From Mayamaea pseudoterrestris (Eukaryota; Bacillariophyta; Bacillariophyceae; Sellaphorales; Sellaphoraceae): a stretch of 64,000 bases of DNA. Below the pieces are notes generated by a model. It did no database searches. It was not told where the DNA came from and saw nothing but the letters and a program-made list of their open reading frames with translations. Below are positions 33,436-56,006 of the stretch, one piece after another. The translations under genes were made by a program, and so were the position numbers. The stretch spans positions 744,001 to 808,000 of the forward strand of contig BROI01000013.1 in NCBI GenBank assembly GCA_027923505.1, given 5' to 3'. Position 1 is the first letter of the stretch. Every line of letters begins with the position of its first letter.

Positions 33436-34458
33436 ATGCAATCAAAATTTCCTCGTCCAAATGACGGTGAAAAGGATGAAAAGATTCGTTTGCAGCAATC
33501 CCAACGATCCAAACTGCTGTGGCTAAGCATGCTGATTCTACTTTTCATTCTGTGTGCGGCCATGTACTTGGCGTCGTCCCCAAACGTCAAGCAAGCCCTG
33601 AATGTACAGCGAGTGAAAATGACGACGGAAACGGCCGCCAAGCTACGAAACATTGTTAGTCACGTCGCCAACGAGGAGCGACAAGTCAAGGAGAAGCAGC
33701 AGCAACCGAAAGCAATCGATCCAGTCGTTACCTTCTCGTCACTACTAGAGGCAGAGTACGGCAAGCTCGATGCTGAGACTCGTAGAATAAAAGCGACGGG
33801 CGTCATCATGGAGAAGGATCCAGCGTCGCAACGAGTCATTTCACAACTCCAAGATTTAGCGCGCAAGCTCATTGTGGCAAAGTACGGCCAGCGCTCCGCC
33901 TATCGCGTCCGACTCGATGTGGAGTTTCAACCATCCATTCCCGATTTTGTGGCAAACGGCAAGGACGGTAGCTTGATTATTGAAATGGCGCCCATTCACT
34001 TGATACCCGTGAGTGTCTACACGTTTCTGGAGGTGGCGCGCACGTATAAATCGGGCAGCTTTCACCGCAACGCCGATCACGTTCTGCAGGCGGAGGTACA
34101 CTCCGGCGTGACCAAGAGTCTGCCCTTTCAAGAGTATTCACCAGAGTTTCCACACACAAAAGGCACGACGGGGTACTGCGGGCGGCCGTCGGGGCCGTGC
34201 TTTTACGTGAGCATTCAAGACAACATTCGCAACCATGGACCGGGGAGTCAGCAAAAGCATAATCCCTATGAAGCGGATGCCAATTTTGGAAGAGTCGTGC
34301 AAGGTATGGATGATGTGGTTCCGCGCATTCATACAGTGCCGCAAAAGGAGTGGCTTGACGAAAAGAATAAAGTGTACATACGAAACATGCACATTTTGGT
34401 GCCAAAGAATAACGACAATCTGGACGAAGGCTTTGTCGAATGGAAGCAAGAATTATAA
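33436..34458 (+). CDS. Type II membrane protein with a degenerate cyclophilin-like domain
   Basis: 340 residues: a short basic cytosolic N-terminus, one membrane anchor (LLWLSMLILLFILCAAMYLA, about residues 28-47), a charged helical stalk (to about 160), then a cyclophilin-type domain. The fold is suggested by VSVYTFLEVARTYKSGSFHR, where FHR matches the catalytic Arg segment, by CFYVSI, and by ANFGRVVQGMDDVVPRI, matching the FGKVxEGMxxVxxI strand. The GSQFFI and W-containing active-site segments of true peptidyl-prolyl isomerases are altered (GPCFYVSI; no matching Trp). It may be a non-catalytic luminal fold, perhaps in the Golgi. The ATG at 33436 is the first in frame. Confidence 0.7.
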   Translation: MQSKFPRPNDGEKDEKIRLQQSQRSKLLWLSMLILLFILCAAMYLASSPNVKQALNVQRVKMTTETAAKLRNIVSHVANEERQVKEKQQQPKAIDPVVTFSSLLEAEYGKLDAETRRIKATGVIMEKDPASQRVISQLQDLARKLIVAKYGQRSAYRVRLDVEFQPSIPDFVANGKDGSLIIEMAPIHLIPVSVYTFLEVARTYKSGSFHRNADHVLQAEVHSGVTKSLPFQEYSPEFPHTKGTTGYCGRPSGPCFYVSIQDNIRNHGPGSQQKHNPYEADANFGRVVQGMDDVVPRIHTVPQKEWLDEKNKVYIRNMHILVPKNNDNLDEGFVEWKQEL

Positions 34459-36581: not shown

Positions 36582-37430
36582 TTACTTAGCAGCAGCATAC
36601 CACTCCTTCACTTCCGGAAGCGCCTTGAAACGTTCAAGAAACGCGGTAAGCTCGGGATACTTGCTCAGCGAGTCGGCTGGAACGTGGTCCATGTAGCCAC
36701 GCGTGAACGCATTGAGCTGGCAAAAGGCCGCGCAATCCGCAATCGTCGGCTGATCCTTGCTCGCCATCCAAACGCCACCACTCTTTTCAATCATGCTGGC
36801 AATATGCTTGGCATGCTCGGGCAGCTTGGTCTCCAACCAGTTGGTCCGCATTTGCTTAATCTTCTCCTTGCCTTCGTCCGTCTTGCCAAAGTCTTGCGGA
36901 TATCCAAAGTCTTGCGGACTCATACCCATGTACAAACAGGGAGACCAACTAGTCCAAAAGTCATTAACAACACCAAGGGCTTCCTCAATGTCGAAGAGTT
37001 GCTCGCGCGGATACAAGGTATCACTGCATGTAGCGCCAACGTAGCGCAGCATGGCCATGCTTTGCGTCCGCGGTGCACCACCGTCAATCGTCATGAGCGG
37101 CAACTTGCCACTGGGCGTGGTTGGTTTCAAAGCAGGCCAGTTGCTAAAGTTGACGCGGTCGTCCTCAAAGGGCGTCTTGCTCAGCACGAACGCCAAGCGG
37201 ACTTGTTCGCCGACTCCGGCAATGTCAAAGTACGTGAGTTTGATGGATGGCTTGGTGGCGGATGTCATGGTAGTCGAAAATAGCAATGAGATGATGGCGA
37301 AGAATAAGCTGACGAACATGTAAGCGTAAAGGTTTGAGTGGTTGTCGAGGGCGACTGATCGTCCAAGTAAAGCCGGAACGAATCCGAAGCAAATCGAAGC
37401 TCGAATAGATTCCTTCTTGTGAGCGTTCAT
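36582..37430 (-). CDS. Glutathione S-transferase, sigma/alpha-like, with an N-terminal hydrophobic extension
   Basis: Conjugates glutathione to electrophiles or isomerises lipids. The catalytic fold starts at KLTYFDIAGVGEQVRLAF with the Tyr typical of sigma/alpha classes. GKLPLMTIDG and the TQSMAMLRYVG glutathione-binding segment (SNAIL-like) follow, and a C-terminal helical domain carries PTIADCAAFCQLNAF. Conventional GSTs would begin near MTSATKPSI (about residue 55). Here an ATG at 37430 adds 54 residues including a membrane-type helix (AYMFVSLFFAIISLLF), which could be a signal anchor, or 5' UTR if the inner ATG is used. A recent 18-nt tandem duplication (36886-36918) gives PQDFGYPQDFG. 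Confidence 0.88.
   Translation of the reverse strand: MNAHKKESIRASICFGFVPALLGRSVALDNHSNLYAYMFVSLFFAIISLLFSTTMTSATKPSIKLTYFDIAGVGEQVRLAFVLSKTPFEDDRVNFSNWPALKPTTPSGKLPLMTIDGGAPRTQSMAMLRYVGATCSDTLYPREQLFDIEEALGVVNDFWTSWSPCLYMGMSPQDFGYPQDFGKTDEGKEKIKQMRTNWLETKLPEHAKHIASMIEKSGGVWMASKDQPTIADCAAFCQLNAFTRGYMDHVPADSLSKYPELTAFLERFKALPEVKEWYAAAK
36886..36918. repeat. 18-nt in-frame tandem duplication in the GST gene
   Basis: The 15-mer CCAAAGTCTTGCGGA occurs perfectly twice, 18 nt apart (36886-36900 and 36904-36918). It encodes PQDFG twice. Perfect identity shows it is young. Confidence 0.95.
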
Positions 37431-41396: not shown

Positions 41397-42083
41397 CTAT
41401 TTACTAACGTAGACTCCTTGATCCACTGTGAACAATCCAAACTGATCCGCCGCCGATCGCCCAAAGGCTTCCAAATGCCCCATAATGGGACAGTTTCCAC
41501 CACAATTTTGCGCGGTAAATTCAAGACTGGCGCTGGTTCCCAAATACTTTTGCGTATCCACGTGAAAGAATCGCACCTGGTCGCTGCGGCGCCAGTGTTT
41601 CGACTTCTTGTTCACACATTCGACAATAAAATTGTCACCATTGTCTCCTTGACCATCGCCTTGTCCATAGGCAGACATTTCCTGCTGCCGACTCAGTACG
41701 CTTGGAACGGCGTGCGAGTGCAGATTGCGCCGCGTGTTCAAATGCGTCAAGCGAATCGTAGCGCCGCACGCAATCAAGGTTCCGGCAATGCAGTCGGGCT
41801 CGCCGTGTTTGGCGCGAATCCACCAGAGTGTATCTGTCGTGACGGGGTCCTGCACGAATGTGACAATCTGCTGGCCGCTGCCGGCATTTAGATTCTTGGG
41901 CTCGCTGTTCAAGTAGTAGTTTGTTTCCTTGTGCTTGATTTTGATGGCGCTGCCGCACGTGACGATGGACTCGTCGTCGTCGTGGCTGCTGCTGCTTGAT
42001 GCGGCGCGGCAAACGCTACAGATGAGAAGGAAAATGGAGAATATGGAGAAACCGATTCTTTTATTATTTATTGTATTCGTCAT
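41397..42083 (-). CDS. SDF2: SDF2-like MIR-domain protein of the ER lumen
   Basis: An ER chaperone-associated lectin-like protein that, in plants and animals, partners with ERdj3-type J-proteins. 228 residues: signal peptide (SIFSIFLLICSVCRA), a Ser/Asp-rich linker, then three MIR repeats forming a beta-trefoil. VTCGSAIKIKH and YYLNSE begin repeat 1; ACGATIRLTHLNTRRNLHSH, with LSRQQEMSAYG, is repeat 2; QVRFFHVDTQKYLGT is repeat 3. Order and spacing match SDF2 closely. There is no clear KDEL-like ending (it ends VYVSK). It lies downstream of the GPI-type genes' strand-mates, so the segment 38-42 kb is rich in secretory-pathway genes. Confidence 0.93.
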   Translation of the reverse strand: MTNTINNKRIGFSIFSIFLLICSVCRAASSSSSHDDDESIVTCGSAIKIKHKETNYYLNSEPKNLNAGSGQQIVTFVQDPVTTDTLWWIRAKHGEPDCIAGTLIACGATIRLTHLNTRRNLHSHAVPSVLSRQQEMSAYGQGDGQGDNGDNFIVECVNKKSKHWRRSDQVRFFHVDTQKYLGTSASLEFTAQNCGGNCPIMGHLEAFGRSAADQFGLFTVDQGVYVSK

Positions 42084-43248: not shown

Positions 43249-46200
43249 TTAAGCATCTATGTCATACCCATACCGGCGATTCAGTTCCTCGTCGCTGACA
43301 AAATGCGATCCTCCACCGCATCTCCATCCGCCGCCTTGCTTGTACCATGTGAACCCAGCTGGACATGCACTGATGGCCCGAAGGCGTGCACGGGTAGCTT
43401 CCGTGCGACGTCGTTCCTCTTCCAGTTGAATTCTCACTTGCTCCAACCGCCTTCGCTCCATTTCTGCTTCGTGACGACGTCGCTCTTCCTCCTGTTCGCG
43501 CCGTTGGCGTTCCTCTTCCAGTCGTTTCCTCTCGAGCTCGAGTTGCGCCGCGAGACGACGCTTTTCCTCGGCAACAATCTCTGCCTGAATGCGAGCTTCT
43601 TCCTCGTCCAACAAGCGTTGCTCCTCTGCAAGTCGCTTGACTTCAGCTTCGTATCTCTCCCTGCATTCCTCGCTGTGTCTGACATGCTCGTCGTAAGCCT
43701 GCCTTGCTTGGAAGGTTTCATTCTCGTGGTCTTTATCTCGAGACTTGGCGGCCTGCAGCGCCGCCCAGACATCATCTGGCACTCCATCGTCCCTTCCATC
43801 GTCTTTTCCATCGTCCTCTCCATCGTCCCTACTCATTTCAAATTTATGCGAACCGCATTCTGAATCTTCGTCCTTTACATCGTCCGCCTTGCCCTCTGCT
43901 TGTTCGAATTGGAAACTTTGATCGCCCATTTCTGCTCCTTGGCTGGCGAATGCTTTCTTTTGTTCGCTGTTCGTAGATTCGGCAATGGCTGTAGGGAGCA
44001 AATCAACATCATTGATTCTTTCACTCATACCCGGACGTCTATGTTTTGGTTTGCGAGATGTGATCATAGCAGCCATGGCTTCGTCAACGTCGGCGAGTTC
44101 AATATTCCGACCGGTCGTCTGTTCTGTACTATCATACGCCCGAACAGCCCAATTAGATTTCGCCTCGTCCCATAACTGTTTCACGTCACGACCGTTAGCC
44201 CAGCCGTCGTAAGTGATGAGTTCTTCGCAACCAGTCCCAATCTGGTGCAATACTTCGCTATTGAGTGGCGAAAAGCCATCCCGTTGACAGCACCGATCGA
44301 AAAATGACGCACAATCCTGTGGGTCCCAGTCCGGAAACTCGAAAAAATGCTGAAAGCGACTTCGTAATCCACTGTTGGCTCGAAGCATTTCATCTATCTC
44401 GTAAGGATAACCAGCAATGACGATAGTCACGTCCTGATAGTCTTCGCTCGTCATACCGGCAACTAGCGTATCACATGCTTCGGCGCCAAAACTACCTTTC
44501 GAAAGATTGTAAGCTTCATCAACGAAAAGGAGTCCGCCTTTTGCTTCACGAAGTTTCTCGCGCACTTTGGGGGCTGTCTGGCCGACGTGCTGCCCTTGCA
44601 AATCAAGAGCTGCCACTTCCACCACTTTATCCGATGGTTTCAGCCCCAATCCAAACAATACGCGCGCGATGCTGCGAGCAACCGTTGTCTTGCCCGTACC
44701 TGCATTAGAAAATCTAACGTGAGTTAAAAAGATTTCAGTTAATCCACCATCGGCGCTTCTGCTCCTTACCTGGCGAGCCAGTGAACACAAAGTGTCCGAG
44801 TGTGGGCAGCCCATTGCCTTCCCGGCGAGCCACGGCCCATGTTTTCCTCAGACGTTCAACTTTCTCTTTAATCTTCTCCATTCGGAAAAGTGTTTCAAGA
44901 TCAGAAAGAGGGTCATGATTGGGATCAAGATTAGATATCTTGCCAATCCTAGCCATGACCATTGACTCCAGGGCGCTCTTTACATCAGACTCGGCAATGG
45001 ACTTCTCAATCACCGGGACGCTATGCACTCGCTCAGACCGGTTGCTTTTGGTCTCCTTCCAAATCTGTACTACATCGCGACCATTACCCCATCCGTCAAG
45101 TTGGCAGATACGGCTGCATCCTTCGTGCATAACGGCAGCGACTGTTTCCTGGAGCACAAACCCTTCTTTCGACGCTAACGACGTAAAGTAGTGAACACAA
45201 TCATCTGGCTTCCAATCCTCAAACTCAAAAAAGTTCGTGAAACGACTTTTTAATCCGACGTTGGTGTCAAGCATTCGATTTATCTCTGTCGAATAGCCGG
45301 CAATTACAATGATCACATCGGAAAAATCCTTGCTGGTCATTGCAGCGACCAAGGTATCGCAAGCCTCAATGCCGTATTGGCCTTCTCCTAATCCATATGC
45401 TTCGTCAATAAAAAGAATACCACCTTTCGCTTCTTTCAGTGCATCATTGACCTTGGTCTTCGTGTGCCCGACAAAGTCAGCCGTAAGGTTCTTCGCAGAA
45501 GTCTCGACAATTTTATTGGAAGGTAAAAGCTGGAGACCGAAAAGGATGTCCGCCATGGCTCTCGCGACTGTCGTCTTTCCCGTACCTTCAAATGAATTAG
45601 ATTTAGATGTTTTTTCGTTTGCAGAAGCTTATATACCAGAAGGTACTTACCAGGCGAACCTAGAAACACGAAATGGCCAAGGGTCGGTTCGTCGCCACCC
45701 TCACGTTGTTGGACGTCCCAGTCCAAACGCATTTTGTTGAGTTTTGCTTTTACCTTGTCCATTCGATACAGTTGGTCAAGTTGAGAAAGCGGATCAGCAT
45801 GTCGTTCACCGCGGGCAAGACCAGGATCCTCAATATCATTGCGATTTAATATAAAGTTTGTCTCAGATGCACGTTTTGCGGCCTTGAGCATTGCTTTGTT
45901 CACTAAAGTTTCAACGCTGCCTGCATTGCCAAAGTGTGTCTGCTTCTTCTGAATTTGCAATATATCTAAAGCTTTTTCTCGGAAGGAAAAGTCGGCGTTG
46001 ACTTCATTTACCTTTAGATACGAGTCAAGAATTTCTAAAAGTTCATTCTCGCTATAGTCCTCGAAATAGAAAGCTTGATCTTTCGGAAATCGGCGAGCAA
46101 GCCCAGGGTTTTGATTTTCAATCATCTTGATCATTTGTACTTCATATCCTACAAGAAGCACCGCAATATCATCAGACGAGGTGCCTTGGACCTTCTCGAC

Positions 46201-49200
46201 AAGCGTATCGAGCACTTGCTTTCCATATAAATTGTCATCGAGACTATATGCTGGGAACGTGTACGGTACAGTACAGAGGGATGGCATGAGTTAAACAAAG
46301 TTCACGAGAATCAGAAATCGCAGTGTCACCGAGCCATACCTTCGTCGACGATCAGCACCTTTCCCTTCGCGCCTTCCAAAATCGCATTAGATTTTGACTG
46401 TGATTCACCGACATGACTGCCAACAAAATCCGAAGCTGCCTTCATCACAACGCCGCCAATCGACAGAAAACCTAGTTCTTTCAAAAGGCGTCCATATAAC
46501 TTGGCGAACGTGGTTTTCCCCGTGCCTGCATACAACAATTAGCGATTAATGTCATGTGATTCTTGATACAAGTTGCACTCGACCTAACAGATACTCACCT
46601 GGATTGCCCATTAGCAAGCGGTTGAGGGACACCGGTAACTGCTGTTTGCCAAGGAGTTCTAACTGATAATTTGTGCCGCATAATTCCACAAAATCTTGGA
46701 CGCTCGATTTTATTCGTCTCCAGCCTATCTTACAGTCGATCTCATCCAGGACCTTTTGCAACTTTTCGCTTGATAGACGGGGATCTGTTCCAATCACATC
46801 TTCAATTGTCAGCCGCATAGTATCAAGACCAAAGTTCCGTCCAAGACGCGCCATTGCGGTTTGCGTCGCCAGTTCGAGGCGTCGGCGGACCTCCTGGACA
46901 AGGAAGAAAAAGGTGATTAGCAACAACTTGCTTTACGGCAGCAAGAACCACATGCCAACGAACACGTACTCTCGCATTGCCAAAGCCCTTTCCTCCCTTC
47001 ATTTTCGTCAAGCGTCGTCCGACTACATCAGACACGCCATCGTCCTCCTCCCATTTTCTCTTTGTTCGCATCTCGGCCCAAATCGTTTTGAGTTCATCCT
47101 CGTCAAAATCCTCGAATTGCACCTCGCGGAATCGGCTCTTCAGACCTTCATTATAGGCAAAAAACTTCTTCTGAAAGTCATCCTCGTATCCGGCAAGTAT
47201 AACTGAAATACGGTCGCGATCGTTTTCTGTTAACGTTAAAAGTTCATTCACGATTGGTTTCCCCTTGAAGTCATTGACTGGGTCAAGATCATAGGCTTCG
47301 TCAACGAAAAGCACTCCATTGAGCGCACTGTTGATAGTCTTTCGAAACTCATCAGCGCCATCATCTTTGACGGCTTGCGCAGTGCATTCGAAAATCTTGT
47401 TCTCAGCCCGAATTCCTGAATCACACAAGATGGCTGCAAACAGTCGGGCCACCGTTGTTTTCCTGGCAGTGACGGAAGTAGCTATGAGTACGTGTGATAT
47501 TGGGTCAATTCAGGCAGCGGCTTTGAGCTCGTACTTACCCAGTCCCTGGGTTACCTAAGAAGCAATAGTTTGCAGCTATCGAATTCGCTTTCCGCGTTTC
47601 ATCGTCCATTGTTTTCAGCTGTAGAGCTGTTTGCCATATGCGCAATGCTTCTTGTTTAACTTTCAACAAGCCCGTCAGGCGCAAGAGATCACTAGTTGCC
47701 TCAGATAACGTGTCCGCAGGATGATGAGTTTGGAGATCAGTCCATTCGCTCCATAGATCAGCGTGAGGATCCGACTTCTTAATGGCTGTGCTTTGCATTA
47801 GCGTCCCATTCACGATGTCGCGCTCGGCTTGGCTCAATACGTCAATCTGTAGAGGGAAAAACTCGAAAAACGTGGAGAGCAATCTAGTGCAATCACGGCT
47901 CTCGAGTCGAGCTGCCACTATCAAGGCCCATGGATGAAGCAAGTCATGAGTTGAGCGCACATGGCGGATGTACGTGTCGAAATGAGATTGAGCTTCAATT
48001 TGCGACCACTGCTGCAACAATTCTGCTGCCATGAGCAAGTGCAAAAGCGGGGCATCCAAAGTCTGTGACAAAGTGCGAATGTATTTGATGCCTTTCATTG
48101 CTGCAGCATCAGGATGAATGAATTGCATCTTATCCAAAATGCTCTGTTGGGCATTAGAAGGAATGCTATCATGATCGATGCCTCCGGTCCATTGCACATC
48201 AAGCTTGTAACCTTCAAGCCTTGTCGTCTGGAGCATACTTTCAGCACGCGCTTCTAGTTCTTCTGTAAAAGCAAGATCTGAGTCGACAGACGATTCGTCG
48301 TCCAGTTCGGCCTCAGTAGTCTGGACTCCATCTGGGTTGCTGCACGCGGCAACAAGCAAACACCCTTTGGGTGGTAGATTGAACCGCAATGATCGACTTT
48401 CCACACACTCGGGTTGTACGTCAGCGAGGCTTTTGGAGAGGTCGAGCAGCTGCTGTCGGGACAGAGTCAAACGGCAGAATGCAACGACCGGGTACGGATC
48501 AAAAACAAGCAGATTGTGAATTTTGTCAAGTTGGTAAGTCATTGAGTCGTATCCGTCGAAGGCAATTCCTCGAGCTAGCTTTTCCTTTAGCTTAGAATTG
48601 CTTGGTGGTGGGTCCTTAAGTACTTTCGTTTTTGCAACTGCAGCGTAACCAAGCAGCAACGTACAGGATTCTCCCTTGATCGACAAGTTAGCAAGATTCT
48701 CTTTGCTCCATAGCATGCTTATCATCCCATGAAAGCTATTGGCACCATTAACGAAAAATTTGGGATTGAAAGAATCCAATCCTGCATTCTTTCGTAGAAG
48801 GTTTCGGAAACAAGGAACACGAGCGCTTTGGAAGTACCACTTTTCGTGGATATCACTACATTCAAGCAACCTTTCTCGACAAATCTTTAGCAGCTTCTTT
48901 TCTTTCTGGATAAAGAGCTTGTCGCGGTTAGGAAACCATGTGATACATTCATCAGGAATGCCATGAAGCAGCTTTCTAAATTCGGCTTCTCCAGTAAACG
49001 CAGCCTGATTGTCGATCGCCCGATTAGCTTCGTCGAGCGAACAACTTGGGCAGTCAATAGGGACACCTTCTGAGCATTGCTTGATGCCTGGCACCGTGTG
49101 CTTTCCAGACCGGCATGTCCAAGTTGACGCGTCCAAGCAAGCTGCCTGGGCATTAAAGTCGCACGGAACCTCAAGCTTTTTGCTGCAATTGTTAAAATTC

Positions 49201-52200
49201 CAGCAGTCAACAAGCTTCGTAAAAGGGCAAACAATGTCGTTTTCACCGGCCGAGTACTGTTCAGCTTCAAAACACTTTGCCTCGACAGTGTGACCACATG
49301 CAAGCTTTACTTGCACGATGCTTAAGCATTCATGGATTGCAGCTCTGCTACTCAACATTGATACAAGTGTGGAGCAGCTCTTTGGTGTCACGTGGCCACA
49401 CGGAAGAACCATTGTAAGTGATTGATTGCAGGCCGATGAAATACTCCGGCATGCATCCGAAGAGAGCTTTTCAAGATCAAATGCAAGCCGGCTACTTTGG
49501 GATATTTCCTTGTCCTTGTAAATCTTCTCATAAACATCTGGCTCCCACAATGATGCTGAAACCAGGTCTTGCTTAACAAAACAAGAAACTCGTATCTCGT
49601 GTCCACAAAGCGGACTCCTCATATGCACCTTCACACGACAAGGCTTCGCCGGTGTGTATACTTCCGAGCACATGACTTCTTCAACATGACCGCAATTACG
49701 AACCAATTTAACTTTTTCGCGGCAGCCTGACAAACCAAAGTTCGACTGACGAGAAGACACGAGGCCTTCTTTAAACTCAAGCGCAGCAATCGGGGCGGTT
49801 ATACCAAGCGCCGTCAGCTCCTCTAGCTTCGTGCATGAGAGACGAACTGGGTGACCACAGGAGGGATGCCTTCCATTGACAAGTGTACTGCACGGTGAAA
49901 GGGAGCAATTTCGGGCAAAAGCTTCACGGCAGGCCATCGTCATTGTATGACCACATGTTCGAACAAGTGTAACTTTCTCTTGACAAGCGAAGTCCTGAGG
50001 ACCGTAAATAACACCCTCCTTTACTTGGCCAACAATTTCAGCATTGACCCCGGTCCAGTCGCTAAGCTTGAGCGCCACTAAACAGGGTACATCTTGAACG
50101 TGCCCACAACGAGGCAACCGAACGCTTACAAGCTGGTCGCAAACAAAAGTCTCGCGACCTGCTAAGATTTGACTTTTCCGACAGCACTGCAGTTTCTTGG
50201 AGTGGCCACATGGTGGATCGTATATGTCCTCCTGCTTACAGGCCACGAGATTGGGTTCAGCGTTATACATCGACAGCTCGTTGCACTTTACTTCTAAAAT
50301 ATGACCACACGATGGAAAGGTGTATGGAACTGGCGACATTAACTTGCAAACGGGAAGGGACATTTGACCGGCAGAAATTTGTCTATCCTTGCTACACGCC
50401 AACTTGCTGGTGTGTCCGCAGGGGAGCGTTCTTATCACCTGAGTGGGACACTGGTAAAAGGACATGACAGATTCATAACTCGTTGAATTTTGTGCAACCG
50501 CAGCATTCTTAAACGCTACGGAGCATGCTACCTTCCCGGGATGCCGGTCGCATGGTGACTCTAATTGCACTTCGCACTGTTTTCTATGCTGTTTCACGGG
50601 CCAATGACAGTCAAGCGAACAAAAATGTCCGCACCCAAGTTTATGCTGGCAAGGCTCTTTACAAAATCCTCGTCGAAGTTCCCGATCTGTTGATGCCAAG
50701 AACGTATTGCTGCGGTGGACTGGACAACAAAGAGGCAGCGCCGGCCCAGTTCTCACGCCGCTGAATAGTTGGTCACTGTTTTGTTGTGAATAGGTATCAT
50801 CTCCTCTCGCCATCTTGAGCTGCTCAAAGGTCTGCGCCCAATGAGCCGGCACACCAGAACTCTCGAAATAGCGAGTGTTTGCAATGAGGTAACATCCCAA
50901 ACGCGCCCGACTCAACAGGACTATCATGCGATTTACAAGCTTAACTGTGTGAAGAAGTGTGTTAAGTGCTAGCTTATAGAGTATAATCGATTAGCAGCCT
51001 CAACTTACCGAAACCAGTCTTCGAGTTTTCATCAACAACAAGACTACATATTATAATATCTTCTTCGTCGCCTTGGAAGCGGTCGACTGTTGATACGCGC
51101 ACAGTCTCATTGCCAACCGGTGCCCTCGGAAGCAGCTGCAAAGGTTGCAAATGCGGCTCTTTGATAAGCATCTCTCTCAACAACATTAGCTGCCCTTTGT
51201 ATGGAGTCAGCACGGCTATCGATGATCGTGGGACGCCACACTCAACAAGATAGGCGACGAGCGAGCAGGTCATTCGCGCTTCGAGCTGGTTAACTCTTGA
51301 CACGCCAACTTTGGATCTCCCCTGCTGACCTTCGTGAGTCCAAAGGAAGATGTGAGGAGCTACGCCTGGAATCTCGCGTCCTGCAGTTGATGAAGATTCA
51401 ACTATTGCCTTCAGAGCTGGACTGGCTCTGGCGCCAACAACCTGCGATTTACAGGTTTCATGATCCTCAATCGCTGTGATATCTTCATAAAAACCCCGAG
51501 TCAAATCACATATGTTTGACCTCATGCGCCGTTGGAGCGATAAGACCGTCGAAGGTACCGCGTGACTCGTAGGGGCTTCAATAAGTCGCTCAAACATGGA
51601 ATTGTTGATTTTGTTGAATACTTCAAAGTCGAAGCGACTCATGACCGAAGGTTTAAGCTGCCGATGATCACCAATGAGCTCAAGTTTGACTGTACTTTCA
51701 GTCAGACAAGAAAATAATAAAGGTTCGAGGACTTCAGAGGCCTCTTCCACAATCACCGCGAACGGCCGCGTCTTCCGAATGGATTCCAAACGAGTAATGC
51801 AACCAACCATCGTACCACCAATCACTGACTTGTTTTCGTAAACTTTGGCTTTCGCGCGGATTTTCGCCTCCTGCAAGTCTGCTCGCGCCTGCAATAGTGC
51901 ATCCTTTATTTCCATGCCCGCTGCCGTAAGCAATCGTCGCAGCTCGTCCATCAAAGCCTGCACTGCTGACCAGCGCTCCTCTAGCGTCATCTCCCATGTC
52001 CAATCCTTAACATCAACAAAGCTCGATGCATCTTGATTTGTTGCTGCGTCATGAAAAAGGTCCATATCCTGTTTGCTCCTATCCGAATAGCTTGACTCCA
52101 CTGAATCACCATCGTCGACTTCAAAAACTTCCCGCAAATGTTGCATCGCTTCTGCTTCGTCGTTCAGATCAGCTTCATCGCTGTCAATAATTTCTGCAGC

Positions 52201-55200
52201 TTTATCGTCGGTTACGACTAGGTTAAAACTTTCATGTGATGACACAGAGGCAACGTCACCATCATCGCACTGTAGAGCTGAATCAAATCTGCGCAACGGA
52301 CTTCCTTCAACAGCGCGAATCTGGCCACAAGGCACTGGTTCTGCGGGTTCGTTCTGATCGACTTCCTTGCAAATTGTTTCCACAGTTGCTTCCTGCGGTT
52401 TCGAGTTTAAAGGTATATTTGTCATGGCGTCGGAGACACGAGAATGATCAAAGCAAAACTTCGACCCCGGCAGGCATATACCTTTGCACGGTTTTCCGTA
52501 TCTGTTAATTGCACTGCATTGCGCTGGAGTTACTTCTAATTGCGCAGGCCGATGACGATGCACCTCCTCATCTGTCATTGTCTCAATTTTAGTTGATTCG
52601 AACATAATTTTCGCCTGACTGCGATGGTCCACACAAAAAGGAACCAATGCAGAAATTGCTTTGCCCTGGCAGGGCTTCTTCTTTTTTGTCAAAGCAAGGC
52701 ACTTTAGTACTAAGTGCTCCGAACAATAATTTTTTTCAGTGTCACTTAACCGAGGGCAGCCAGGGTAGCAGCAAATTGGATGTTCCGAGCAGACATTTCG
52801 AGGCGGAAGATCCTCGGCAAGTTCGGAGATAATTCCAAGTTCAACACATCGCCAGCAAGCATGTTGAGTACAGAATTTTTGACCGTCTGCCAATTTCAGC
52901 AAACCACAATCTTCAAATTCACAACTATGCATGAGACAGTAACAGCTGTCGGAATCCTTGCATTGGCTTGTACAACGGAAGCCTCGATCCGCCCGACAAA
53001 TATGCTGGTCGCAGAGCCTGATATCCGGCGACACGGCAAGGTTCGTGCACCTTTCAAATCCACATTTCGGTAGAGGCGTCTTACCACTAATCCACTTCCA
53101 GAGCAATTCTCCCCAGTGATCCAGGCTTTCAGACGTTTCGTCGCCAACGAGTGCAGGCACTAAGATGGAGCCTGAATTTGTCTGCAGCAGGCATTTCACT
53201 CGTTGACTGCGCGATTGCGCGTCGCCTGGCGGGCTCACGAAACGAAACTTGTCGACAATTTCTGTCGGCTTCGGCTTGACGCCCTCTGTCGTGCTTGCAT
53301 CAGCCGAATTCGCCTCTCGAAGCAGATGCCTTTGACAGATGCACTCCATCAATACATCCGTCGCTTCATAACTCGCCTTCCGCCTGCTCGCATCATCATC
53401 GTTACGAAACATCAAATGAAAATATGATAGATAGGTTGACAATGTACGATCTATCGTAGCCTGCACCAGGTCGCGGCAAACATTCAAATTGTCTACCAGC
53501 TTGCGTGCAACAGTCACCTGAGCATCAGACTGATAAGCGCTTCGCTCCGAATATTGTAGAAGCCGATCATCCTTGCACTGTCCACCGATGCGAATAAGAT
53601 GCCTCCCATTTAACGAGGGCTCAGCTGCTACCAGATCGACCAAGAACTCGTCAATTGCATGGTTCTTGTAAGAAAGTACTACATATTCCAAAAAAAGCGT
53701 CAGCATGTAGCGACAGATAAAAATGAAACAAAGTACGTCATGCAAATCTTACCGAGTATAGGAGATGCGCCAACTGAAGCACTCTTCTTGATCCAAAGAT
53801 CCCGAATTAGCATAAGCGCCCGAACCAGCACTACCCCAAGGTAAGACTTGCCGGTGCCTGAAAAAAGCCCGATAACGTGTCAGAAAGAATATAATTCGCA
53901 AACCGCAGCCACATGGAGAGACGCACCTGGAGGACCTTGCGTGAGATGGACTGGATCGCGCAACGCTTCAACGAAGCTGATAAGCTGCATTTTATCCAAA
54001 GTCGTTACCGTAACGAGATGCTGGAGCTTGGAGCTCAGCGTCAATCGCAGACTTTCATCTCTTCGAATTTCGCGAATAGGCTCGAGCTGGCTGTTAGCGA
54101 TCATCTCATCCATCAGCGGCCTGTAATCGACACTATCAGTTGCGGACAACAACATCTCTAAGTTCATATCTGTGCGAGGAATTGGACTGTCCTTCTGCAG
54201 ATTAAGGTGCCTTCCGTTTTCAAACGGCAATTTTTCGTGACGCTGGCGGTCCAGAGCCCGAAGAACTGGAACCCATTCTGGAACAAAGGTCATGCAATCA
54301 ATAATAGCAACGGGCAAGCCTGCTTCGAAGTAGTCGGGATCGCAGCCGACAATAGAGGAGATGTTAACTGCGATCTCTCCAGCGTCACGCCGGCGGTCCT
54401 CTCCACGTGAGTAATCGTGATTGACGACTTCTGCCCATTTGATGCGATCGCCATTCGACAATGTAGAGCCCCGAGCATGAAGACGCACAAGGCCAACAAG
54501 GTTGGGAGTAGCCAGACGCTTCGTTGTCCTCCAGTGGATGCTCGGTGGCGGATTACGACTCTTAAAGTTCACAAGATACAGCACTCCATCAGGATCCACG
54601 TGTTTGATTCGAGCGTCATAAATATGCGTAGAAGCGTTCTGACCAGGGACGCCAAGATGATTTGTAATGCAACGAGTGGCGCATTCGGCGCATAAAGCGT
54701 CGTGTGATCGATTTCGGCAACAAAATTCCACGGGCCGTCCACAGCCCCTTGAGCGGCACTTGAGGTTACCGACTTGATTTCCGTTTGTTTCCGCGACAGG
54801 CCAAAGAGCATTTCCACAAGCTCCATTGTTGCCGCGGGCGCGGCAGTGAGGAGCAATCGCGGCATGCCCATCAAAAAATGTCATGGCCGTCCAAAGGCGA
54901 TGAACAACTGACATGTACTCGTCAGCCGACTCGTACACACCTGCCTTTCCAATCTTCATCTTGGGGCACGAGGATGGAGAAAAGATATGCGGATTGGCAA
55001 GCCATTGAATCGTCGGCATCTGCCAAGCATCGTATCCAGTTCCGCCGTCGCTGGCGCACGTTGCTTCGATATCCGTTTCACTCAACCCAATATCACGGGT
55101 GCGGACTCGCCACGGCTTGCCCAAATCTTCCAACAAGTCCATCAATCGCCCGCCAACATCTCGATGATCCTTGAATTTTTTTCGAAGCTTCGACTCTGCG

Positions 55201-56006
55201 TGCAGGATAATGTTGCTTAACGACGACCGGATTTGGTCTGCCCCACAATCCCAATCGAAAAGAAGCGTTCTAGTAACTGCGTCTAAAACCGTCTTGACGA
55301 CTGTAAGAACATGATCGTCCGACGAGTCCGCATCCACCTCTTGATCGAGAAACTTTGTCGCAGCTGCTTCAAACTCCTCAGGTGGCGGCGGGTCAACCGA
55401 CGAAGATCCAGGAATCTTTGCCAAGACCTCCAGCATGCAGCATCTGGTCTTGTCGTCGAACTGTCCATGATTCAACCAGCAGCGGCGCCAAAGAGTTGCA
55501 CTTTTTGACAGTTCGTCACCGAGCTTCTGCACGGGGATTATCGACAAGTGCTTGATAAACTTGCTCGTGTCGGTAGCAAGCTGCTGTCCATTGCTCTGCT
55601 GCTGCTGCTGCTGCTGCTGACTTCGTCCACCTGCTCCTTGGGTACTCGCGCCGCCACCATGCGAGAACCTGCAGCTGCTACCAAACCGACAGGAGCCAGT
55701 ACTTTGCCACTCGTGACAAACACCAGCTTGAAAACCGCCGCGGCCGCTGCCACGACCACCGCCTCCGCCGCGTCCTCCAGCAAAATTGCCACGACCGCCC
55801 GCATTGTTTCTTCCGCCACGGCCAGCGCCGCCTCCTTGCTGGTTTCCACGACCACGGCCAGAGCCGCCACCGCCGCGACCACTGTTACTGCCGCCTCGAT
55901 GCGGCACGCCTCCACCAGCACTGGGCCCACCGACATGACGAAACCTGCAGCGAAATCCGTGCGGACAAGCCCCAGTCTGGCTCCACTGGTGGCATATCCC
56001 CGACAT
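43249..56006 (-). CDS. Giant ZNFX1-like SF1 helicase with NFX1 repeats and four CbxX-type AAA+ modules, ten exons
   Basis: Exons (high to low): 53927-56006, 53753-53857, 51009-53678, 47539-50944, 46970-47462, 46599-46893, 46340-46525, 45651-46250, 44770-45585, 43249-44699. They total 12,102 nt, 4,033 residues, with GT-AG introns of 64-89 bp. Domains: two C-x8-C-x5-C-x3-H fingers (to about 120) around Gly/Arg-rich sequence; SF1 helicase with Walker A GPPGTGKS (about 691), a 600-residue Cys-rich and acidic insertion, VIVEEASEV, GDHRQLKP, VDRFQGDEED and LLSRARLG (to about 1625); about ten CGHxxxxxC NFX1-type repeats (about 1650-2160); four AAA+ modules (about 2700-3790), each with intact Walker A, VDEAY or IDEAY and NxGLxxRF; then a Glu/Arg coiled coil. 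Helicase/NFX1/CbxX fusions occur in fungi and stramenopiles as I recall. ZNFX1 acts in RNA silencing and antiviral sensing; that role here is inference. Confidence 0.88.
43789..43836 (-). repeat. 12-bp coding repeat in the giant gene's tail
   Basis: About four 12-bp units (CCATCGTCNNNT type on the plus strand) encode a DDGE/DDGK/DDGR/DDG series in the linker between AAA4 and the coiled coil. The approximate limits follow the protein repeat. Confidence 0.75.

What the first reader, a model, noticed from the sequence alone, without database searches (positions are those of the whole stretch)
43249..56006. A 4,033-residue fusion of CCCH fingers, ZNFX1-like helicase, NFX1 repeats and four AAA+ ATPases
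Ten exons join at GT-AG sites into one frame whose total length divides by three and ends at a single stop. The result links an RNA helicase of the UPF1/ZNFX1 type to a string of four complete CbxX-type AAA+ motors, so five NTPase engines sit on one chain. ZNFX1 relatives work in small-RNA inheritance and antiviral RNA sensing. Adding four AAA+ modules, each with intact Walker A, Walker B and an Arg-finger-like NxGLxxRF, suggests an RNP-remodelling machine or a genome-defence factor. Shorter fusions of these domains exist in fungi and other stramenopiles as I recall; four AAA+ copies plus CCCH fingers may be unusual.
Basis: partly seen in the sequence, partly recalled or inferred. Interest (0 to 1): 0.75.

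Follow-up and report, generated by a model that had tools for sequence, protein, structure and literature searches.

The report
ZNFX1-like helicase fused to ATPase motors
A diatom gene really does encode one 4,033-residue protein joining a ZNFX1-type RNA helicase to four ATP-driven motor modules; the layout belongs to a widespread protein family for which I found no description in print, and it seems to hide an inactive-looking PARP-shaped domain.

Summary
The gene model is right: ten exons, nine GT-AG introns, one stop, 4,033 aa, identical to a GenBank protein of the diatom Mayamaea pseudoterrestris. "Unusual" is wrong: of the 120 best long homologues listed, 105 carry the helicase and 103 of those have three or more CbxX AAA modules (73 three, 24 four, 5 five, 1 six), in diatoms, oomycetes, chytrids, Hydra, plasmodiophorids and others. 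New points: (1) module 2 has Gly in place of the sensor-2 Arg in 100 of 101 resolved helicase-bearing proteins, while module 1 keeps Arg in 104 of 104; (2) extra modules are copies of the last, type-3 module, made independently in diatoms and Peronosporales; (3) residues 2270-2453 are predicted to fold like a PARP catalytic domain, with no HG[TS] motif in 114 of 114 relatives; (4) the N-terminal model matches the ZNFX1 ARM domain and helicase core best; (5) a C-terminal C-C-H tail is conserved. Best reading: a ZNFX1-like RNA-binding machine with an asymmetric CbxX motor, probably remodelling RNPs; the function is untested. New variant of a known kind.

The parts
43249..56006 (-). whole gene, 10 exons: 56006-53927, 53857-53753, 53678-51009, 50944-47539, 47462-46970, 46893-46599, 46525-46340, 46250-45651, 45585-44770, 44699-43249
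   Evidence: splice model; identical to database protein P0001
55935..55994 (-). CCCH zinc finger 1 (aa 5-24)
   Evidence: pattern; zf-CCCH has two stretches
55659..55718 (-). CCCH zinc finger 2 (aa 97-116)
   Evidence: zf-CCCH best stretch 96-117
55107..55592 (-). ARM-type helical domain (aa 139-300)
54240..54935 (-). beta-rich domain before the helicase (aa 358-589)
53539..54089 (-). SF1 helicase, first part with motif I GPPGTGKS (aa 640-775; interrupted by introns 1 and 2)
52429..53091 (-). Cys/His-rich insert in the helicase (aa 925-1145)
   Evidence: 25 Cys and 9 His in 215 aa; many of the Cys/His nearly invariant in ten relatives
50820..52017 (-). SF1 helicase, second part (aa 1283-1660)
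   Evidence: AAA_11 and AAA_12; aligned to human ZNFX1
49272..50663 (-). eleven CGH repeats, the NFX1-like block (aa 1713-2176)
   Evidence: first units align with ZNFX1
48441..48992 (-). PARP-fold domain without the HG[TS] motif (aa 2270-2453)
47700..48278 (-). helical domain of unknown kind (aa 2508-2700)
   Evidence: model; not tested on its own
46813..47687 (-). AAA module 1 (aa 2705-2945; no aromatic-hydrophobic-Gly pore loop)
45820..46776 (-). AAA module 2 (aa 2958-3222; sensor-2 Arg replaced by Gly)
44981..45816 (-). AAA module 3 (aa 3224-3480; type 3)
44086..44935 (-). AAA module 4 (aa 3496-3755; type 3, 50.7% identical to module 3)
43381..43713 (-). Arg/Glu-rich stretch that looks like a coiled coil (aa 3880-3990)
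   Evidence: by eye from the sequence
43303..43365 (-). C-terminal C-C-H tail CPAGFTWYKQGGGWRCGGGSH (aa 3996-4016)

Best explanation
What it is: a ZNFX1-like protein (ARM domain, SF1 helicase with a Cys/His-rich insert, CGH fingers) that carries, after a PARP-fold domain, a block of CbxX-type AAA+ modules and a C-terminal C-C-H tail. This is shown by sequence and predicted fold. How it most likely works (inferred): the CCCH fingers, helicase and CGH fingers bind and move along RNA; the AAA block, held on the same chain, pulls on or unfolds proteins met there, as CbbX is known to do with the tail of Rubisco (recalled), so that the whole remodels or strips ribonucleoproteins. The AAA block is asymmetric: type-3 modules keep the CbbX-like pore loop and all catalytic residues and would do the pulling; module 1 has lost the pore loop and module 2 the sensor-2 Arg, so they would be nucleotide-regulated parts of the ring. 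The PARP-fold domain would be a binding module rather than an enzyme.
For: Full-length chain confirmed. Best solved relative is ZNFX1 over helicase and first CGH fingers; ARM domain and helicase core of ZNFX1 are ranks 1 and 2 of 974 chains in the structural second look. AAA modules closest to EccA1 and CbbX. Catalytic residues: 4 of 4 modules intact at Walker A, Walker B and Arg finger. Gly at sensor 2 of module 2 in 100 of 101 resolved helicase-bearing proteins (1 Ala, 4 gaps), Arg in module 1 in 104 of 104 (1 gap). Module-3-type pore loops read YVGQT-like, module 1 lacks that motif. Helicase, CGH block and PARP fold go together with the AAA block: 69 of 70 proteins with helicase, CGH block and two or more AAA modules have the PARP-fold domain.
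Confidence: 0.45

Rival explanations
1. It is a small-RNA or genome-defence factor in the manner of C. elegans ZNFX-1: the helicase keeps small-RNA/target complexes in order, and the AAA block only assembles the protein into large particles.
For: Helicase closest to ZNFX1; the same genome has a Piwi domain (two matches, E 1.5e-35) and an RdRP domain (E 1.1e-132). A review names the role of the C. elegans homologue in inheritance of small-RNA defence (PMC11959080, abstract).
Against: No gene neighbour or expression links it to small RNAs. The catalytic residues of the AAA modules are kept in nearly all relatives, which a mere scaffold would not need.
Confidence: 0.25
2. It is a cell-autonomous immune sensor that works like vertebrate ZNFX1 and RNF213: RNA or ATP binding switches on a ubiquitin or other modifying activity at the C-terminus.
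For: ZNFX1 and RNF213 are linked by the RZ finger and immunity, and RNF213 activity is switched by ATP binding to its AAA core (PMC12075652, passages). The chain here joins a ZNFX1-like helicase and AAA modules and ends in a conserved C-C-H tail after a coiled-coil-like stretch.
Against: No RZ finger match at E up to 10 in exons 1, 3, 4 and 10 nor in 14 tails at E up to 1. RNF213's core is described as dynein-like with six units, this one is CbxX-like with four.
Confidence: 0.1
3. The AAA block is a general protein-quality or assembly motor and the helicase half merely targets it to ribosomes or stress granules.
For: The same triple block and tail occur on other N-terminal parts, for example a 6,534-aa haptophyte protein with VWFA (P0077), and many shorter proteins with ankyrin-type domains.
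Against: Helicase motifs and the Cys/His of the fingers are strongly conserved, which a pure targeting tag would not require.
Confidence: 0.15
4. Gene-model artefact: two or more genes run together.
For: Large size; no transcripts of this species available to me.
Against: 103 of 120 listed homologues have helicase and at least three modules on one chain, one of them with a transcript-assembly name (P0012); all junctions are GT-AG and keep frame; the database annotation is identical.
Confidence: 0.02

Closest known systems
Human ZNFX1 (ARM domain, SF1 helicase, NFX1-type fingers, coiled coil, RZ finger)
   Same: Helicase and the start of the finger block align; ARM domain and helicase core are the two best structural matches of the N-terminal model; order of domains the same.
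   Different: No RZ finger found; two CCCH fingers, a Cys/His insert, a PARP-fold domain and four AAA modules are added here. Domain list of ZNFX1 from PMC11959080, section 1.1. Whether ZNFX1 has the PARP fold was not tested.
CbbX / SpoVK / EccA, the CbxX-CfqX AAA+ family
   Same: AAA plus AAA_lid_6, Walker A and B, Arg finger; CbbX-like pore loop in type-3 modules.
   Different: Several modules on one chain, with module 1 lacking the pore loop and module 2 the sensor-2 Arg; no Rubisco link tested.
RNF213 (mysterin)
   Same: Giant chain with several AAA units of unequal capacity; link to ZNFX1 through the RZ finger (PMC12075652, passages).
   Different: Six dynein-like units, RING and RZ modules there; four CbxX-like units and no RZ match here.
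PARP-fold proteins, including pseudo-PARPs such as TASOR
   Different: No sequence-level match; HG[TS] absent in 114 of 114 relatives.
Dikarya helicase plus three-AAA proteins of about 2,300 aa (for example Aspergillus nidulans AN7246, P0119)
   Same: Same kind of helicase, three modules, same C-terminal tail motif.
   Different: No CGH-block hit and no PARP-fold hit in the three checked, P0119, P0099 and P0104; helicases fall in a separate group.

Membership tests
ZNFX1 | SF1 helicase closest to ZNFX1 among solved structures | tested here: met
   E 1.4e-46 to 9q9z; next helicase Aquarius 6.3e-18
ZNFX1 | N-terminal ARM-type domain | tested here: met
ZNFX1 | NFX1-type zinc fingers after the helicase | tested here: inconclusive
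   Eleven CGH units, first aligned with ZNFX1; no Pfam NF-X1 match in exon 4 at E up to 10
ZNFX1 | C-terminal RZ finger | tested here: not met
   No PF20173 match in exons 1, 3, 4, 10 or in 14 tails; none in the genome either, but no control rang
CbxX/CfqX AAA+ | AAA core with AAA_lid_6 | tested here: met
   Four stretches each
CbxX/CfqX AAA+ | Walker A, Walker B, Arg finger, sensor-2 Arg | tested here: inconclusive
   First three 4 of 4 modules; sensor-2 Arg 3 of 4, Gly in module 2
CbxX/CfqX AAA+ | Rubisco activation (CbbX proper) | not testable with these tools
   -
PARP (ADP-ribosyltransferase) | PARP catalytic fold | tested here: met
PARP (ADP-ribosyltransferase) | PF00644 sequence match and HG[TS] of the H-Y-E triad (motif recalled) | tested here: not met
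   No PF00644 match; HG[TS] in 0 of 114 segments
RNF213 | Dynein-like six-unit AAA core and RZ finger | tested here: not met
   Four CbxX-like modules; no RZ match

The most novel reading that the evidence does not exclude
These giants are an old eukaryotic single-chain defence machine in which the parts that vertebrates keep on separate proteins sit together: a ZNFX1 helicase, CCCH fingers with a dead PARP fold (as in ZAP/PARP13, recalled) and an AAA motor (as RNF213 does with another AAA type). RNA sensing by the front half would switch an asymmetric CbxX motor that tears apart foreign RNPs or capsids, and lineages tune its power by copying only the fully active last module.
Probability: 0.12. 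Interest if true: 0.88.

Novelty: new variant of a known kind. Interest (0 to 1): 0.6.

Why it matters
ZNFX1 is a human immune gene whose relatives carry memory of small RNAs in worms, yet how it acts is open. A widespread family that ties a ZNFX1-like helicase to protein-pulling motors says that, at least in these organisms, RNA handling and forced protein remodelling are one process. The conserved oddities (sensor-2 Gly in module 2, lost pore loop in module 1, only the last module ever copied in the forms compared, a PARP fold without its motif, a C-terminal tail) give direct handles: each can be tested by a point change or deletion in a laboratory fungus or diatom.

Tried and rejected
Rejected: that the layout is rare; that the gene is two genes; that the tail is a known zinc finger (no Pfam family in more than 1 of 14 tails, best E 0.0015; PDB matches only to short pieces of fluorescent proteins and one glycoprotein, E 0.11 or worse); that the four-module layout of diatoms and oomycetes is one inherited duplication (AU p 1.4e-62; the group was named after I had seen the tree).

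Led nowhere: whether the helicase-AAA fusion is ancestral and lost or arose more than once. In the helicase tree (34 rows, 9 of 31 inner branches starred, long branches flagged) 13 giants form one group (93/89), four Dikarya forms another (99/96), and forms without AAA lie between. PF26600 and PF26601, which many relatives carry, are not in the library, so their names are unknown to me. PARP and RZ searches of the genome found nothing, but no control rang. The helical part 2508-2700 was not tested alone. NCBIfam's SpoVK and EccA models score above their cut-offs only as sums over four stretches, so I do not use them. No paper describing this family was found in the searches; subscription journals and preprints are not held, and listings of long result sets were seen only in part. 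PMC2705460 on oomycete fusions has no occurrence of helicase, AAA, CbxX, CfxQ or NF-X1 in its main text.

Limits of the counts: one search scored only the 1,940 candidates sharing most words, found 407 and listed 120; lengths were limited to 2,218-7,058 aa; the counts are of those 120. Trees: one search used 24 proteins and one search used 18 proteins picked by hand from the 120; modules under 171 aa were dropped (so no Aphanomyces module 1), and one long bacterial module was left out. Modules were counted at over 90 bits. The sensor-2 figures printed were read one residue off and were redone. The PARP-fold profile was built from 14 of the proteins it was then counted on. The P-loop intron figure was computed after seeing the pattern.

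Full report
Observation. On the minus strand, 56006 to 43249, nine GT-AG introns of 64 to 89 nt join ten exons into a 12,102-nt frame with one stop, 4,033 residues. The protein is identical to P0001, MPSEU_000674800 of Mayamaea pseudoterrestris, a pennate diatom. The window is contig C13, 744001-808000, of a 30.6-Mb assembly, in which searches with the AAA module and with the helicase showed no second copy of this gene, only weaker AAA and SF1 matches elsewhere. A paper on diatom annotation lists the species' annotated assembly GCA_027923505.1 (PMC12159174, passages); the genome paper itself was not read.

Anatomy. From the N-terminus: two CCCH fingers; a helical domain, aa 139-300; a beta-rich domain; an SF1 helicase interrupted by a Cys/His-rich insert (25 Cys and 9 His in 215 aa); eleven CGH repeats; a mixed alpha/beta domain, aa 2270-2453; a helical part; four AAA modules; an Arg/Glu-rich stretch that looks like a coiled coil (by eye); and a C-terminal tail CPAGFTWYKQGGGWRCGGGSH. 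Helicase motifs I (GPPGTGKS), II (EEAS), III (GDHRQLKP), V and VI are readable in the sequence (motif names recalled).

An asymmetric AAA block. All four modules keep Walker A, Walker B and the Arg finger. Module 2 has Gly where the others have the Arg that aligns with the NAR of CbbX; a review places the sensor-2 Arg at the start of helix 7 and reports that its mutation diminishes nucleotide binding, while classic AAA members have Ala there (PMC5039278, passages). Among the 105 helicase-bearing proteins listed, module 2 has Gly in 100, Ala in 1 and a gap in 4; module 1 has Arg in 104 and a gap in 1. Outside the helicase group the rule is looser: 8 Gly and 2 Arg at module 2, and 5 Arg and 5 Gly at module 1, of ten three-module proteins. 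Module 1 lacks the aromatic-hydrophobic-Gly pore loop, while type-3 modules mostly read YVGQT or close to it.

How the modules multiplied. In a tree of 67 modules of 18 proteins, module 1 (16 rows, 98/93) and module 2 (17 rows, 100/100) are each one clade from diatoms to fungi and Hydra. All further modules, 28 rows, form one type-3 clade (98/93). Inside it the third and fourth modules of the two diatoms group together (4 rows, 100/99), and those of Peronospora and Phytophthora do so apart from them (4 rows, 100/99); five-module forms make a third cluster (9 rows, 100/98). Forcing the fourth modules of diatoms and Peronosporales into one clade is rejected (AU p 1.4e-62; hypothesis chosen). Aphanomyces and Thraustotheca records show three modules, in line with a later gain in Peronosporales. 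So the last, fully equipped module was copied, more than once; module 1 or 2 is not seen copied alone in the trees (one record, P0047, has two triples).

The tail. The C-C-H motif occurs in 137 of 354 fetched proteins and always ends 1 to 25 residues from the C-terminus. In 14 tails C, G, W, G, R, C, G, G and H are invariant. It goes with the AAA block, with or without the helicase (for example P0077-P0082). It has no Pfam family and no solved relative.

Introns in the P-loops. Five of the nine introns fall inside the five P-loop octets: helicase and modules 2, 3 and 4 at exactly GxPG|TGK (phase 1), module 1 at GTG|K (phase 2). A uniform model gives 1.2e-8 (computed after the fact). In 13 other AAA or SF1 loci of this genome at hand the P-loop is uncut (L001, L002/L004, L003, L005-L008, L012-L014, L021, L025, L027/L028), but these were picked by matches that favour uncut domains. 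Sharing between the non-homologous helicase and AAA P-loops, with CAG|G-like contexts in part of them, favours repeated insertion at a like site over inheritance; modules 3 and 4 may share theirs by duplication.

How it works. Shown: one chain, ZNFX1-like front half, CbxX motors with a fixed asymmetry. Inferred: RNA-guided protein remodelling. The genome has Piwi and RdRP domains, so a small-RNA role is possible. The vertebrate parallel, ZNFX1 and RNF213, is a lead only; RNF213 is switched by ATP binding to two of its six AAA units (PMC12075652, passages), which shows that unequal AAA units can serve as a switch.

Verdict. New are the regularities found here. I rate it a new variant of a known kind, interest 0.6.

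Noticed in passing
window 53858-53926, 47463-47538, 46526-46598, 45586-45650, 44700-44769: All five P-loops of the gene are cut by introns, four of them at the same codon position GxPG|TGK.
   Followed up: partly
window 43303-43365: C-terminal C-C-H tail, in 137 of 354 fetched proteins, always within 25 residues of the C-terminus, with no Pfam family or solved relative.
   Followed up: partly
window 52429-53091: Cys/His-rich insert inside the helicase, its Cys and His mostly conserved in the giants; kind of finger unknown.
   Followed up: no
P0011, P0028, P0029: Bacterial or metagenomic proteins of 2,233-2,502 aa with eight or nine CbxX-type AAA domains at E up to 1e-5 in tandem and no helicase hit.
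   Followed up: no
P0077, P0082, P0083, P0084: Proteins of 6,049-6,766 aa, one named from the haptophyte Prymnesium, with VWFA in the precomputed domain list, three CbxX modules, and the C-C-H tail in three of the four by pattern.
   Followed up: no
P0017: A five-module giant filed under the beetle Zophobas morio, with 14 member sequences; contaminant, parasite or transfer not resolved. Its extra modules are its own duplications.
   Followed up: no
G000:C5:105655-106557 and 116397-117299; G000:C5:664089-665924: Two Piwi matches with the same score about 10.7 kb apart, and one RdRP match, on one contig of this diatom.
   Followed up: no
window 33436-34458 (+), 36582-37430 (-), 41397-42083 (-): Neighbouring frames that look by eye like a cyclophilin-type protein, a glutathione S-transferase and a secreted MIR/SDF2-like protein (not searched).
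   Followed up: no
P0021, P0023: Oomycete records in which the giant's precomputed domain list also has a protein kinase and the CGH block is missed; gene-model fusion or real is open.
   Followed up: no
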